Of a DNA stretch of 64,000 bases, positions 19,318-42,210 are shown piece after piece. The notes under the pieces are model-generated. The model saw only the letters and a list, made by a program, of their open reading frames with translations, did no database searches and was not told the origin of the DNA. How positions within the stretch are numbered: the first letter of the stretch is position 1; each line of letters opens with the position of its first letter. The DNA is from Actinomycetaceae bacterium zg-1166. GTDB lineage: Bacteria > Actinomycetota > Actinomycetes > Actinomycetales > Actinomycetaceae. The stretch spans positions 186,001-250,000 of the forward strand of contig CP064953.1 in NCBI GenBank assembly GCA_015679245.1, given 5' to 3'. Made by a program: the position numbers and the translations under genes.

Positions 19318-19444
19318 ACCTGGAAATCATAGGCCATACTCATTCGGCATTTCTGTGCTGATCGACGCCCATCTATTCTTGAAGAAAAGACCTTATATGT
19401 ACGTACCGCACTCTTTTCCGTGTCAACATAAGGGAGACATATCG

Positions 19445-20467
19445 GTGGCATCACGGCAACTTCTCAACTCGCGCTTACCTCTCGTCGCAGCACCTATGGC
19501 GGGTGGACTCTCAAGCATCGAACTCGTACGCGCAGTATCCAATGCTGGAGCTTTCCCTTTTCTTGCTGCCGGTTACCAAAAACCAGACGCGTTAGACGAA
19601 CAGATCACTCGTGTTCGCTCGTTCGCAGAAAACTTTGGAGTTAATGTTTTCGTGCCGGCAACAACCACTATCAGAAACGACGAGCTCGCCGATTATGCGC
19701 GCGAGCTGCAACCTGATCTTGACGAGTACGGTCTCCAAGCCGATCTCAGTGCCGGATCGGATGAGGATTATTGGCACGAGAAGATTGAACTCTTGCTCGC
19801 TAATCCGGTTCCAGTTGTCTCCTTCACCTTCGGACTCCCAGATAGCAGCATCATTCACGCCCTCCATAACGTCGGAAGCACAACACTCGCCACCGTAACA
19901 ACCGCCGAAGAAGCTAAGCAAGCAGAAACACGTGGAGTAGATGGCCTTGTCGTCCAAGGGCCGCGAGCAGGAGGCCATAGCGCCACATTCACTCCCGAAC
20001 GAGAGATCTATGAGTGCAGCACGGTTGAGGTTGTACGCTCAATCCTTCCCGTCACAGCGCTCCCGGTCATTGCCGCAGGAGGTGTTGACGGGCCACATGC
20101 GGTTCGTACCCTCCTCGATGCTGGAGCTCACGCCGTGGCGGTGGGAACGCTGCTACTACGCACCACTGAAGCGGGAACATCATCCACATATCGCCGCGCA
20201 CTCGCTGACCCGGCTTTCACCGAAACCCTGATAACGAGAGCTTTCAGTGGTCGCCCTGCACGCTCACTGCGCAATGGATTTATTGATCGCCACCCACAAG
20301 CTCCGTGTGCGTATCCAGCGATTAATCATCTGACTCTCAGCATGAGAAAGGCTGCGGCTAAGGCAGGTGACGCCCACCGAATCGCGCTGTGGGCTGGAAC
20401 AGGATGGAGACAGGCCCGCTCGGAACCCGCAGCGCAGACCATTACTCGACTAGCAACGCTAATCTAA
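19445..20467 (+). CDS. Nitronate monooxygenase (2-nitropropane dioxygenase family)
   Basis: This FMN-dependent TIM-barrel enzyme oxidises alkyl nitronates and detoxifies propionate-3-nitronate in characterised relatives. The 340-aa protein starts with PLVAAPMAGGLSSIELVRAVSNAG. It carries GVNVFVPATT and GVDGLVVQGPRAGGHSATF, with the catalytic His region. LPVIAAGGVDGPHAVRTLLDAGAHAVAVGTLLL is the FMN phosphate-binding part. I chose the GTG at 19445 because AAGGGAGA precedes it and homology begins right there. The divergent LysR gene is the likely regulator. Confidence 0.88.
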   Translation: MASRQLLNSRLPLVAAPMAGGLSSIELVRAVSNAGAFPFLAAGYQKPDALDEQITRVRSFAENFGVNVFVPATTTIRNDELADYARELQPDLDEYGLQADLSAGSDEDYWHEKIELLLANPVPVVSFTFGLPDSSIIHALHNVGSTTLATVTTAEEAKQAETRGVDGLVVQGPRAGGHSATFTPEREIYECSTVEVVRSILPVTALPVIAAGGVDGPHAVRTLLDAGAHAVAVGTLLLRTTEAGTSSTYRRALADPAFTETLITRAFSGRPARSLRNGFIDRHPQAPCAYPAINHLTLSMRKAAAKAGDAHRIALWAGTGWRQARSEPAAQTITRLATLI

Positions 20468-20519
20468 CAATATCCACCTCTATGGGAGGATACCGCGATG
20501 ACTGCCGAGGATTTTCTCG

Positions 20520-20714
20520 TTGTTGGCGGTCAAACTACTGGGCATGTGTCAGGCGCTTGTCGTCAACGATGGGGCTCTGCCCAAGTACTGGGTGGAGGGA
20601 GCAAACCCACCCATCATCGACCCGCACACCTGGCAGCAGATCCAAGAAGACACAGCTCGGGCATGTGCCGCTGCCGGTCTTGACGATATCCTCGATCACG
20701 CACCGCTCGGGTAG
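20520..20714 (+). pseudogene. Fragment of a large serine recombinase
   Basis: A short open stretch encodes VVNDGALPKYWVEG followed by NPPIIDPHTWQQIQED. This matches the conserved part of the Recombinase domain in large serine integrases (pattern VNxGxxPxYYVExxHPAIIDxxxF), which sits just before the zinc ribbon. The catalytic resolvase domain and the rest are missing, and a stop follows within 20 residues. The last part (CAAAGLDDILDHAPLG) is not typical. It is evidence of a lost integrated element, not a working gene. Confidence 0.5.
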
Positions 20715-21353
20715 TGGGGACGCTGGAGATAATGCGTGAACGCGGTAACTACCGCAACGCGCTAGCTGGATCAGTGCGCTTAGTCTTTGACCCACGTAAG
20801 CTACTTCCTGCTATAAGCTATCTAAAGCTCAGATCACCTTAGCAGCACGTTATTTTATCTTCGACGGTATCGTGCCGTTGCCCAACCTTGTTGACGTGAG
20901 CCGAGGGAGGCCATTGTCGTTTCTCTGGCGTAGGGCGCACCATGAGTGTAAGGCCGTCAAAGTCTCGATAATAGTTACTTTGCCAGCTAGGCCTAAATGT
21001 CGAAGTATCACGTGGTCGATCTGTGGGGATATGGGGTGCAGATCGTAGAAATTGGCGTTTGGAGCAATCTAATCTGCCATGATGACGAGTCCTGTGAGCA
21101 GCATTGTGGCATTGGCGTTGAGCCTGGTAGAGGTAACTTTGTTGAAAATCTGAGGAGAGTTATCTGGGTTTGCACGAGAGGGTTGATCTAAGCCAGCAAT
21201 GTGCGCGCAAAAATCAAGAGTTCTTTCTGTAGGCATTTCCACTGCGTGGGGTGAGCCTCAAGGCGTGATCGTGCAGGTGCGAAAGGGGCAGGATTGCAGG
21301 GAAAACCGTGGTGGGCACCGACAACCTCGCATAAGGGTAGAGACGTGACTTCT
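20715..21353. other. Debris region without an intact gene
   Basis: Only short random frames are present. A piece at about 21233-21258 ends in GGGGTGAGCC and loosely resembles half of a type I-E CRISPR repeat, but it is isolated. The region is bounded by the recombinase scrap and the cas3 relic and reads as decayed mobile or defence DNA. Confidence 0.4.
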
Positions 21354-21816
21354 TCATTCCACGGTCACTGAGCTACCTATCGAGGATCGCGCGAGACATC
21401 TCGCTGTGGTAAAAGTGCTGTTTTTGACGGCGGGTATGAGTGAATCGATATCAATTCCCGCTTCGTGGAGGTGATCGACGAGATGAGCATAGTCGAGGCG
21501 ATCGGATATGAGAGTTTGAAAATCAACACTGCCTTTGCCGGCGTCGTGTGCAGCGGTGAGGAATACAAAGAGGCGTCCAATCTCCTCTTCGGTGAGTTGT
21601 GTGAGTGTGGCTAACTGCGCTCTGTGTGAGGAGCTGAGCCAAAAGCACCGTAACCATCCTGCGACACATGCTGAATCGGCGCAGTGTTGTGGGAGTGAAA
21701 GAAACCAGTTTCATCGCCTGATTTAGTCCACACTGAACGAAGAGCGTTCGAGAGATAGGGGCGAGGTCTACCTGGGTGGAAACACTCTCAAGTAGGGAAG
21801 GCCGGGGCTTATCCAT
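21354..21816 (-). pseudogene. cas3: Relic of type I-E cas3 (N-terminal HD nuclease part), frameshifted
   Basis: Read on the minus strand through three frames, the fragment gives a continuous Cas3-like N-terminus. MDKPRPSLLESVSTQVDLAP leads into WTKSGDETG in a second frame and then NWFLSLPQHCADSACVAGWL. The same third frame continues to GRLFVFLTAAHDAGKGSVDF and LVDHLHEAG in the order expected of Cas3 (LWAKS, first HD-motif His, HD-x-GK, xFQ). The metal-ligand His and HD residues are still readable, yet two frameshifts and an early stop at 21354 remove everything after the first half of the HD domain. The helicase part and the cascade genes are absent. Identification is from motif order only. 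Confidence 0.68.
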
Positions 21817-22022
21817 GACTTGAGTGTAATGTGCTTCAAGGATGTACAACCCCTTAAAGACCCCAAGATCCCAGTCGATAACTACGTGTAAATTTACTGC
21901 TAGACCTCTTAGATCTCCAGAAGAGATGCTGTGGGCGGTGTGCTCTGGTAAGCGATGGTGGAATCTCGTAGAGGCTGAAGTTCTCATTCTGCAAAGCTGA
22001 CACGTTGATCTAGTGAAATCTC
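21817..22022. other. Gap upstream of the cas3 relic
   Basis: About 200 bases with no gene. It holds the 5' flank of the cas3 relic and ends at the promoter of the sugar operon. Confidence 0.4.
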
Positions 22023-22053
22023 TTGACATGTGTGACGTGCCTTCCTCTATACT
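22023..22053 (+). promoter_or_regulatory. Promoter of the ribose/deoxyribose-type operon
   Basis: TTGACA (22023-22028) and TATACT (22048-22053) match the vegetative consensus well, although the 19-bp spacer is longer than ideal. The expected start site falls at about 22060, right at a palindromic operator and about 75 nt before the kinase start. Confidence 0.65.
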
Positions 22054-22060
22054 TTCTAGT

Positions 22061-22082
22061 TGTACGTAGATGTACACATACA
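22061..22082. promoter_or_regulatory. Candidate GntR operator
   Basis: TGTAC and GTACA half-sites form an inverted repeat (22061-22076) and a wider TTGTA/TACAA pair surrounds it. The site lies at the predicted transcription start of the sugar operon. A GntR/HutC regulator is encoded at the end of the same cluster, so repression released by a sugar or sugar phosphate is likely. The link is inferred. Confidence 0.5.
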
Positions 22083-22135
22083 AGTGCTATTGACGACGAC
22101 GTAGATAGCAAGACTGCACAAACAAGGGGGTAGTT

Positions 22136-23035
22136 GTGATTCTTGTAGTTGGCAGCTATGGAACCGGCATCACACTGCAGGTCCCACGAGTTCCTGAACG
22201 CGGTGAAACACTTGCCGGAGCAACTCTTTCGATTGGCTATGGAGGAAAATCCTCGAATCAAGCCGTTGCTGCTCGTCGGCAAGGCGTAGAAGTCGAACTC
22301 ATCACCACTGTTGGTGATGATTCCTTTGGTCATGACGCTTTCGAACTGTGGAAGCGCGAAGGAATCGGATCATCCAACGTCGCGATCTCGAAAGAACGAG
22401 CAACGATGGCAGGTGCGATTTTGGTTGAGCCTTCAGGTGATAATCGCATCGCAATCGCTTCGGGAGCATTGGACGAGATGACACCCGTGTGGATAGAGGA
22501 AAAAGCAGACATTTTCGATCAAGCATCGCTCGTAGTACTCTGCCTCGAATGTCCCGATGATGTCGTAACTCAAACAGTCCAGATGGCTGCAGAAAGAAAA
22601 ATTCCGGTGATCTTAAATCCGGCACCAGCCAAAAAATTAACCAAGGAGACCATCGCACTCGCAACCTACTTCATTCCGAACGAGACAGAGTACGAATTCT
22701 ACAAACGCGAAGGGTACTCACGCACCACCGGGCAAACACTAATTGTCACTCGTGGTGAAGAAGGAGTATTGGTCGCCGACGAAACAGGAGAGCGTGAATA
22801 TCGTCCATACGTACAGGAGAAGGTGGTAGATACAACGGGCGCAGGTGACACCTTTGTTGGCACATTTGCGGCAGGTATCGCTCGTGGACTTGATCTTGAT
22901 GAAGCAGTGAAGAGAGCAATCGTCTCTTCCGCAATTTCCGTTACGAGGAATGAGGTTATTCCCGCAATTCCACGACTTGCGGAAGTCGATGAGGCTTTGA
23001 GGATCTACGAAAGCAGCGAAGGAGGAATGGGCTGA
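22136..23035 (+). CDS. PfkB-family sugar kinase (ribokinase-like)
   Basis: The 299-aa kinase has the PfkB family pattern. The N-terminal VVGSYGTGITLQVPRVPERGE is followed by the substrate loop GGKSSNQAVAARRQG, mid-protein PVILNPAPAK and FIPNETEYE, and the anion-hole signature VVDTTGAGDTFVGTFAAGIA with the catalytic Asp. It most likely phosphorylates ribose or 2-deoxyribose at O5, given RbsD and DeoC in the same operon. GTG start with a GGGGG-type RBS. It is the first gene and overlaps the permease start by one base. Confidence 0.85.
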   Translation: MILVVGSYGTGITLQVPRVPERGETLAGATLSIGYGGKSSNQAVAARRQGVEVELITTVGDDSFGHDAFELWKREGIGSSNVAISKERATMAGAILVEPSGDNRIAIASGALDEMTPVWIEEKADIFDQASLVVLCLECPDDVVTQTVQMAAERKIPVILNPAPAKKLTKETIALATYFIPNETEYEFYKREGYSRTTGQTLIVTRGEEGVLVADETGEREYRPYVQEKVVDTTGAGDTFVGTFAAGIARGLDLDEAVKRAIVSSAISVTRNEVIPAIPRLAEVDEALRIYESSEGGMG

Positions 23036-39568: not shown

Positions 39569-40795
39569 TCAACTTCCGAGGAAGGAACGTTCATCGCGCT
39601 TGAGACGAAGGACATTCTCGATAAAGGAATTGAGAGCTTCCTTGAAGGGGATGTCGTGGCCAGCCTGCTCAGAGATGTACCACCTGTGCTCAAGGAACTG
39701 GTGAAAGATCTCAGCAGGCTGGAGCTTGCCGCGAAGCTCCAACGGCACCCCGCTTACAGTGGGTTCAAAAACGTTCGCCATCCAGGCGCGGGCAACGAGC
39801 GTCAGACTCTCGTCGATCATTCCCCGAGTGGCACGGTACTGCTCAAGATCGTTCATCATGCGACGAGCCTGGTTCTCTTCGACATCCATACCCGTCAGGC
39901 GCATGATGAGACGTGAATAGTGCCCGGCATCTACTACCTTGGGTGTAATGAGAAGATGGGTACCGTCCTCAGTTGTGCTCATGGAAAGCTCGCCCACATC
40001 GAAGCCGAGTTCATTTAGGCGCTCGATACGTTCGGCCACCTTCCATCGCTCATTCGTTCCAACCAAGCTCTGGCGCGTGAGTTCAACCCAGAGTTCCTCG
40101 TAGCGTTTGGCGAAAGAATCTCCAATCGACACCGCATCGTAGGTAGGAGGAAGAATTCCACCAGCCTGTAAATCCATAAGTTCACCAATGATATTTGTCC
40201 GCGCCACGTCGATATCGTATTCGCGCCGCCCGCGCGTGAGACTCTCATAGATCTCACCTGTCTCCGCATCAACGAGATAAGCAGCAAAGGCTCCAGCATC
40301 ACGGCGGAACAAAGTGTTGGAGAGGGAGACATCTCCCCAAAAGAAGCCGATAAGGTGCAAGCGAACCATGAGCACGGAGAGAGCATCAATAAGACGGCGT
40401 ACCGTTTCGGGGCGTTGATGATTTCCGAATACGGCGCGGTAAGGCAGAGAGTAGGGAAGATGCGCAGTGATGAGAGCCGCACCCATGGGTTCTCCGTCCT
40501 CACCCATGCGGCCACTGACCACTGCAATAGGTTCTACCGCAGGAGCTTCAAGGCGGGCAAGCCCGCGAAGTGCCTGGTATTCGCGGTGAGCAAAGCGTTC
40601 GTCGATTTCTTTGACAGCGATAATGCGCTCGTCGTCCAAAGAGATGAAACGTACGATATGGCGAGAGATTCCACGGGGAAGTGCAGCTACCAATTCCTCG
40701 GGCCAATTTTCGAGTGGAAGATGCCAAGGAAGAGAATCAATTGCGCTGTCGTGGCGAGTGGTAGTGATGGAAAGACTCTGGTTTATTGATCTCAC
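39569..40795 (-). CDS. DUF4032 protein with lipopolysaccharide-kinase-like N-terminal domain
   Basis: The 408-aa protein has a protein-kinase-like fold in the first 230 residues. RIIAVKEIDERFAHREYQAL gives a VAIK-type lysine, LSVLMVRLHLIGFFWGDVSLSNTLF is the catalytic-loop analogue (GDxxxxN) and AYLVDAETGEIYESL is the DFG-like segment. The C-terminal part is the DUF4032 domain. Related proteins are common in actinobacteria, and the substrate is unknown. I place the start at the GTG at 40795, which overlaps the ABC ATPase stop as GTGA; a GTG at 40807 is the alternative. Co-transcribed with the ATPase. Confidence 0.75.
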   Translation of the reverse strand: MRSINQSLSITTTRHDSAIDSLPWHLPLENWPEELVAALPRGISRHIVRFISLDDERIIAVKEIDERFAHREYQALRGLARLEAPAVEPIAVVSGRMGEDGEPMGAALITAHLPYSLPYRAVFGNHQRPETVRRLIDALSVLMVRLHLIGFFWGDVSLSNTLFRRDAGAFAAYLVDAETGEIYESLTRGRREYDIDVARTNIIGELMDLQAGGILPPTYDAVSIGDSFAKRYEELWVELTRQSLVGTNERWKVAERIERLNELGFDVGELSMSTTEDGTHLLITPKVVDAGHYSRLIMRLTGMDVEENQARRMMNDLEQYRATRGMIDESLTLVARAWMANVFEPTVSGVPLELRGKLQPAEIFHQFLEHRWYISEQAGHDIPFKEALNSFIENVLRLKRDERSFLGS

Positions 40796-41910
40796 GATCC
40801 CAGGCACTCCCCGGTGGTCGCAGAGAAGAAATGGAAGGCCTCCATGGGTACATGAACCCTCACCACGGTACCTCCGACTGGAATTGAGCGAGGCTCTACA
40901 CGCAAGGTTATCTGGCGTGAGTCTTCCCCGGAACCGAAGGGCGCCTTTTCACATTCTGCCCCCATGAGGCGTCCGTGGATATAAGCGTCTGATCCTATTG
41001 ATTCAGTGAGGTCAACCTGTATCTCAAAGGTGGCATCCTCGCCTTCGCCCACAATCCTCGCTCCTTCGGGACGAAAACCAAGAATTATCTCACTCCCGTT
41101 GAGGACGGAGCTTACCTCACGAGGAAGGCGAAGATGAGCTGAGGCATACCTTGCTTCTTCTCCCTCCACACGCCACCTGCCGAGATTCATGGCAGGTGAG
41201 CCAACGAATCCAGCCACGAAGGCATTTGCTGGCTTCTCGTACATCTGCCTGGGGGTGGCTACCTGCTGAAGTACGCCGTTATTGAGCACAGCGATACGGT
41301 CGCCCATCGATAGGGCTTCAGTTTGGTCGTGAGTGACGTAGATCGTGGTGATTCCCAGACGCTTCTGTAATGAGGAGATTTGTGTGCGCGTCTGGGTACG
41401 CAGCTTTGCGTCAAGGTTGGAGAGAGGCTCATCCATGAGGAAAACGTGCGGTTCACGCACGATAGCACGCCCCATTGCCACACGCTGGCGTTGCCCGCCA
41501 GAGAGAGCCTTCGGCTCGCGATCAAGATAAGGCTCAAGATCGAGGATTCGTGCTGCCTCTTCTACACGTGTGCGAATCACTTCGGGGCGTTCTCCGGCGA
41601 TTTTGAGGGCGAATCCCATATTGTCTGCCACTGTCATATGAGGGTAGAGCGCGTAGTTCTGGAACACCATCGCGATGTCGCGATCCTTGGGGGAGACATC
41701 GGTGACATCGTGCTCTCCGATGAAAATTCGCCCGGAGGTAAGTTCTTCCAGGCCAGCTACCATACGCAAGGAGGTAGATTTCCCGCATCCTGAGGGGCCG
41801 ACGAGGACGAGGAACTCTCCGTCTGCGATATCGAGAGAGAGACGATTGACTGCCGGCTCGTCGCTTCCGGGATAGATGCGTGTTGCCTTATCGAAGGTTA
41901 CGGATGCCAT
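40792..41910 (-). CDS. Sugar ABC transporter ATP-binding protein (UgpC/MsmK/MalK type)
   Basis: The 372-aa ATPase has Walker A GPSGCGKST, the Q loop FQNYALYPHM, signature LSGGQRQRVAMGRAI, Walker B VFLMDEPLSNLDAKLR and the switch histidine YVTHDQTEA. The C-terminal 120 residues form the TOBE/OB regulatory domain of the CUT1 class (ILGFRPEGARIV, GSDAYIHGRLMG). Such MsmK-type ATPases often serve several sugar transporters encoded elsewhere, which fits the lack of permease genes here. It is translationally coupled to the DUF4032 gene. Confidence 0.9.
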   Translation of the reverse strand: MASVTFDKATRIYPGSDEPAVNRLSLDIADGEFLVLVGPSGCGKSTSLRMVAGLEELTSGRIFIGEHDVTDVSPKDRDIAMVFQNYALYPHMTVADNMGFALKIAGERPEVIRTRVEEAARILDLEPYLDREPKALSGGQRQRVAMGRAIVREPHVFLMDEPLSNLDAKLRTQTRTQISSLQKRLGITTIYVTHDQTEALSMGDRIAVLNNGVLQQVATPRQMYEKPANAFVAGFVGSPAMNLGRWRVEGEEARYASAHLRLPREVSSVLNGSEIILGFRPEGARIVGEGEDATFEIQVDLTESIGSDAYIHGRLMGAECEKAPFGSGEDSRQITLRVEPRSIPVGGTVVRVHVPMEAFHFFSATTGECLGS

Positions 41911-42210
41911 ATTGTATTGGTTCCTTCACCGACAGGTACGTGCCGGACGATCCGAGTGAAAGGTGCCCGAGTTCGTGTCAACTCTGACACAGCTCGCCGG
42001 AGAGCGAACCTCGTCTATTGTGGCACGCTATCTTGCTCAAGAGGAAACGAACTCAGGGTATTCCTCGTGTATATCTGCCCACTTTTCCTCTAAAGATCTA
42101 TCTATTTTCCTTGTAAACCTCAATTCGGATTCCTGCGTATGTGGCCTCATTTCCTGCCTACTCGCCATATCAACCTGCATCTCTCACTCTACCTCGGGTA
42201 GCGTAGAGAC
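41911..42210. other. Divergent intergenic region
   Basis: 300 bases between the minus-strand ABC ATPase and the plus-strand kinase. TAGCGT (42199-42204) fits the TAnnnT -10 consensus and is six bases before the kinase GTG, so that message may be leaderless. Nothing else is recognisable. Confidence 0.45.

What the first reader, a model, noticed from the sequence alone, without database searches (positions are those of the whole stretch)
21354..21816. A frameshifted cas3 relic
The minus-strand pieces WTKSGDETG, NWFLSLPQHCADSACVAGWL, FLTAAHDAGKGSVDFQ and LVDHLHEAG fall in Cas3 (type I-E) order but in shifting frames, and the piece ends early. This is direct evidence of a lost CRISPR-Cas system.
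Basis: partly seen in the sequence, partly recalled or inferred. Interest (0 to 1): 0.62.

Follow-up and report, generated by a model that had tools for sequence, protein, structure and literature searches.

The report
Collapsed remnant of a CRISPR-Cas operon
A short stretch of dead DNA holds the broken start of cas3 and the end of cas2, the two ends of a type I-E CRISPR defence operon whose middle is gone, so this bacterium most likely once had this defence and has lost it; it is a clear but ordinary case of gene decay.

Summary
The minus strand carries a Cas3 HD domain in changing frames; it is the only place in the genome with a Cas3_HD match (E 9.2e-20). A frameshift-tolerant alignment scores 293, against at most 52 in 300 shuffles and 53 in 72 other window tiles.

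The relic is larger than reported: about 21754-20855, three colinear pieces of a type I-E operon. They are the cas3 HD domain (21754-~21015), a 16-residue piece of cas3 from just before its DEVH box (21014-20967), and the last third of cas2 with a stop (20964-20855). A Cas2 profile from seven relatives hits the genome only here (E 0.0097). Six measured relatives need 8.0-9.4 kb from cas3 to cas2; about 0.9 kb is left.

No match to Cas1, Cse1, Cas7 or Cas6 models and no I-E array was found in the genome. In the same genus, G001 keeps an I-E operon with a frame-shifted cas3, G002 keeps orphan arrays without the cas genes searched, and G003 shows neither.

Verdict: a genuine, ordinary relic of a lost type I-E system, not expected to function.

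The parts
21015..21754 (-). cas3 relic, HD nuclease domain (residues about 14-250 of a 951-aa Cas3), several frame shifts and in-frame stops
   Evidence: PF18019 E 9.2e-20; frameshift-aware score 293 vs shuffle max 52
20967..21014 (-). cas3 relic, residues about 447-462, just upstream of the DEVH (Walker B) box; the box itself is gone
   Evidence: 6 of 6 Cas3s given score 43-59 vs 100 shuffles each, max 28-33, 6 of 7 beat all 30 shuffles (one by a point) and one did not. The weakest of the three pieces
20855..20964 (-). cas2 (Cas2e) relic, residues about 79-112 plus TAA stop, one frame shift inside
   Evidence: 7 of 7 clade Cas2s score 73-94 vs shuffle max 35-43; sole hit of Cas2 profile A1 in the genome, E 0.0097, at 20914-21000
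20498..20729 (+). Decayed neighbour, not part of the cas operon: metallo-beta-lactamase-fold hydrolase, residues 1-13 and 201-253 of a 253-aa G001 protein, middle lost
   Evidence: Score 101 vs 200 shuffles max 52, and N-terminal piece 45 vs 500 shuffles max 32; fold from Pfam on the G001 protein
19406..20467 (+). Intact left flank, nitronate monooxygenase (74% identical in G001)
22136..23035 (+). Intact right flank, pfkB-family carbohydrate kinase followed by a transport permease

Best explanation
This is the collapsed remnant of a type I-E cas operon that once lay on the minus strand between a beta-lactamase-fold gene and a sugar-kinase operon. Shown: a cas3 HD domain, a second short cas3 piece and the cas2 end lie in operon order on one strand with the middle missing. 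Inferred: at least two deletions (about 0.6 kb inside cas3; about 7.9 kb from mid-cas3 to cas2) removed the helicase, Cascade genes and cas1; the array that relatives carry beyond cas2 was lost too; indels and nonsense mutations then broke what was left. It makes no working Cas3: the process here is decay, not activity.
For: Cas3_HD hit with stops; frameshift-aware score far above the nulls. The seven best intact matches are 33-36% identical and lie in I-E operons. The tree pairs the relic with G004's I-E Cas3 at 100/99 (the read-through had been fitted to that protein, so this leans towards it). Cas2 remnant. No Cas1, Cas7, Cse1 or Cas6 match at E 0.001 in the genome and no I-E repeat array. 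No convincing piece of the six genes between.
Against: The cas2 evidence rests on about 34 residues and a genome-wide E of only 0.0097. That hit starts at 21000, so it runs 36 bases into the stretch I assign to cas3. Cas2s outside the clade mostly fail: G001 46 (8 of 200 shuffles reach it), G006 45 (19 of 200), G004's second operon 42 (4 of 200); only G018 (61, 0 of 200) holds. PF09707 finds nothing here, though a Cas2e model covers only residues 1-85 of these proteins. The middle cas3 piece scores lower with two clade members (43, 46) than with the other four Cas3s given (55-59).
Confidence: 0.91

Rival explanations
1. Only a 5' fragment of a cas3 gene arrived or remained; the cas2 piece is a chance likeness, so a whole system at this place is unproven.
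For: Cas2 piece is short; PF09707 misses it; part of the same DNA can be aligned to cas3 in another frame (11 of 11 Cas3s beat 100 shuffles on 21014-20850, scores 52-73).
Against: 7 of 7 clade Cas2s beat every shuffle on 20964-20850; 462 other window tiles reach at most 58 against 98; the single genome-wide profile hit falls exactly here; clade Cas2s score higher than clade Cas3s on 21014-20850, 77-98 against 52-73.
Confidence: 0.07
2. Sequencing or assembly errors break an intact gene.
For: Frame shifts can be assembly errors.
Against: Single-contig, 99.5% complete genome; several shifts, in-frame stops and some 7-8 kb missing against relatives; flanking genes are open.
Confidence: 0.01
3. 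The leftover HD segment is kept as a small nuclease or as a regulatory RNA.
For: HD-type motifs AHDAGK and GAHHG survive.
Against: They lie in different frames with stops between; no Rfam family reaches its gathering score in this region.
Confidence: 0.01

Closest known systems
Type I-E cas operons of the same bacterial family (G004 C31, G127, G222, G165, G221, G220, G114)
   Same: Cas3 HD and Cas2 sequence, gene order and strand
   Different: Six measured ones span 8.0-9.4 kb, their Cas3 frames are open and all seven lie by a repeat array; here about 0.9 kb of broken ends is left
I-E operon of same-genus G001
   Same: Same subtype (Cse1, Cas7, Cas6, Cas2 models); its cas3 also has one frame shift
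   Different: On another contig; Cas3 on another branch and Cas2 hardly matching the relic; Cascade, cas1 and array present
Orphan I-E arrays of same-genus G002
   Same: Leftovers of a lost I-E system; repeat one base from G004's, six from G001's
   Different: Array without cas genes, the reverse of this genome

Membership tests
Cas3 (type I) | HD nuclease domain | tested here: met
   PF18019 E 9.2e-20 unguided; TIGR01596 65.4 bits over cut-off 43.45 with the read-through
Cas3 (type I) | SF2 helicase with Walker A, DEVH box and C-terminal domain | tested here: not met
   In this region only residues about 447-462 show; helicase models were not run genome-wide. A relic, not a working Cas3
Type I-E locus | Cas3, Cse1, Cse2, Cas7, Cas5, Cas6e, Cas1, Cas2 together | tested here: not met
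   Only cas3 and cas2 pieces here; Cas1, Cas7, Cse1, Cas6 without match in the genome; Cse2 and Cas5 not searched genome-wide
Type I-E locus (ancestry) | Nearest relatives are I-E | tested here: met
   G004 C31: Cas1e, Cas7/Cse4, Cse1, Cse2, Cas5e, Cas6/Cse3 and Cas2e models over cut-off; six further operons homologous to it
Type I-E locus | CRISPR array with an I-E repeat | tested here: not met
   Four scattered 3-mismatch hits in the genome, none spaced as an array; none in the window; other repeat kinds not searched genome-wide

The most novel reading that the evidence does not exclude
The four held species of this genus show separate stages of I-E loss: operon plus array with a shifted cas3 (G001), IS21-split orphan array (G002), fused cas3 and cas2 ends only (this genome), nothing found (G003). 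Denser sampling of the genus could show whether cas3 damage precedes the loss of Cascade genes and arrays.
Probability: 0.3. Interest if true: 0.35.

Novelty: new member of a known kind. Interest (0 to 1): 0.22.

Why it matters
It speaks for loss, rather than never-acquisition, of adaptive immunity in a small-genome actinobacterial lineage, and it leaves a scar whose junctions could be compared between strains. The genus offers a small natural series for the order in which I-E parts are lost.

Tried and rejected
Parsing of 21014-20855: I read it first as cas3 alone, then as cas2 alone from 21011. Splitting the stretch shows no cas2 signal above shuffles at 21014-20965 taken alone, while cas3 explains 21014-20967; hence three pieces. 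The genome-wide Cas2 hit that begins at 21000 does not fit this split perfectly.

I first thought the ORF at 20520-20714 looked like a serine recombinase. It has no Pfam hit and aligns to G001's beta-lactamase-fold gene.

A first tree lost minus-strand loci through my orientation slip and was redone with 18 of the 21 Cas3_HD loci that one search found outside this genome; the three weak partial matches (L020-L022) were left out. Weak tblastn rows (low-complexity filter off, many opposite-strand ORFs) were treated as noise. A weak cse1 row elsewhere in the window (12483-12307, E 0.014) was not followed. In one search cas1 beat its 8 shuffles by little on both strands (42 vs 39; 40 vs 37) and was not taken as real. 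A genome-contig scan with the left-flank protein gave 18 loci, 45-63% identical, in other actinobacteria; it did not name the organism.

Paper searches were seen as listings with starts of abstracts. Of PMC6306256 I saw passages: I-E systems listed in 19 of 21 Corynebacterium bovis isolates and none in two. That cas operon decay and orphan arrays are widespread is recalled. I made no thorough search for earlier reports of this locus.

Full report
Observation. The minus-strand frames contain all four quoted peptides in Cas3 order. An unguided Pfam search of the whole genome (one contig, 1.92 Mb, 99.5% complete) gives a Cas3_HD match, E 9.2e-20, at window 21048-21704 with three stops inside, and a weaker overlapping one at 21164-21349; there is no match elsewhere in the genome. 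My frameshift-aware alignment to G004's I-E Cas3 covers residues 14-251 at 21754-21009 (85 of 238 identical, five shifts, two stops, score 293); seven other Cas3s scored 80-176 over much the same stretch. Controls: 300 dinucleotide shuffles, maximum 52; 72 other window tiles, maximum 53. The motifs AHDAGK, GAHHG and MAD before a stop survive in two frames; that these belong to the HD active site is recalled.

What it belongs to. A read-through of the relic, fitted to G004's protein and so biased towards it, matches TIGR01596 cas3_HD over cut-off and PF18019. Its best solved relatives are TTHB187 (3sk9, E 8.5e-9; a Cas3 HD domain, recalled) and Cas3 4q2c (E 2.7e-5); two further Cas3 records (6c66, 4qqw) came only at E 1.5-1.6. 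Among 213 genomes of the family 79 have a match, the own one counted; the seven intact Cas3s with the best E-values (G114, G165, G127, G004, G222, G221, G220) are 33-36% identical. In G004 all eight operon genes match I-E or Cas3 models. In five of the six others all eight genes are recognised as homologues of G004's, in operon order; in G114 cse1 was not. In a tree of 19 rows, relic included, the relic pairs with G004 (100/99), apart from G001's Cas3.

The missing half. tblastn of G004's operon proteins against the window gave a cas2 hit in two pieces within 20964-20858, E 0.002. Frameshift-aware scores for the seven clade Cas2s are 77-98, none reached in 200 shuffles each; of four Cas2s outside the clade G018 scores 61 (0 of 200 reach it), and G001, G006 and G004's second operon score 46, 45 and 42, reached by 8, 19 and 4 of 200. 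For the two clade Cas2s tested, 462 other window tiles reach at most 58 and 56, against 98 here. A profile of the seven, run over the whole own genome at E up to 10, has one hit: window 20914-21000, E 0.0097. Splitting the stretch shows that 20964-20850 carries the cas2 signal (73-94 against shuffle maxima of 35-43; seven clade Cas2s), while 21014-20965 alone carries none (20-22, reached by 18-37 of 100 shuffles). That part matches Cas3 residues about 447-462 instead (43-59 against maxima of 28-33; 6 of 6 Cas3s given). This middle piece is the weakest: 6 of 7 Cas3s beat all 30 shuffles, one of them by a point, and one did not; other window tiles reach 42 and 48 against 48 and 60 here. For cse1, cse2, cas7, cas5 and cas6 no score exceeds its 8 shuffles; cas1 does by 3 points on each strand, on the minus strand over the cas2 piece, and I do not take this as real.

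Model. Operon ends in order on one strand: 912 bases from 21766 (the furthest start, G056 alignment) to 20855, against 8000-9366 bases in six measured relatives, with 6912-8461 bases missing if read as one junction. The sizes of about 0.6 and 7.9 kb for two deletions are my arithmetic from residue positions in G004. The order and number of deletions are inferred.

Genome and genus. At E 0.001, Cas1, Cas7, Cse1 and Cas6 have no match in the own genome, G002 or G003, and at E 10 neither has Cas2 PF09707; G001 has all of them. G002 and G003 also have no Cas3_HD. The I-E repeat pattern forms an array beside G001's operon; in G002 it forms 7 plus 4 repeats split by an IS21-type pair of genes (Mu-type transposase and IstB domains). 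In the own genome it gives four scattered 3-mismatch hits, in G003 two. G002's repeat differs by one base from G004's and by six from G001's (my count on the repeats), which hints that a system of the relic's kind once existed in G002 too; this is weak, as I-E repeats resemble each other widely. G001's cas3 has one shift in an otherwise full-length gene (534 of 971 identical to G006), which may be a draft error.

Neighbourhood. The left flank is shared with G001. The next gene there, a beta-lactamase-fold hydrolase, is also decayed here, with its two ends kept and its middle lost. So the 20468-22135 gap holds two dead genes or operons.

Verdict. The finding is an ordinary relic, made more telling by the cas2 end.

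Noticed in passing
window 20498-20729 (+): Remnant of a metallo-beta-lactamase-fold hydrolase gene that is intact in G001; first 13 and last 53 residues matched.
   Followed up: yes
L039:10549-13463 (G001 C9): cas3 of the same-genus I-E operon is split into two ORFs by a single frame shift; real or a draft error.
   Followed up: partly
L080:8874-11628 (G002 C8): Orphan I-E array (7 plus 4 repeats) split by an IS21-type pair of genes, with further transposases beside it, in a genome without Cas3, Cas1, Cas7, Cse1, Cas6 or Cas2 matches.
   Followed up: partly
L094:9934-17934 (G114): I-E operon in which cse1 was not recognised; the gap between cas3 and cse2 is under 0.5 kb.
   Followed up: no
L044 and L045 (G004): One genome carries two I-E-like operons (the second by eye) of different layout and different repeats.
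   Followed up: no
window 41915-41971 (-): msiK RNA motif just upstream of a MalK-type ABC-transporter ATPase gene (40792-41910, -).
   Followed up: partly
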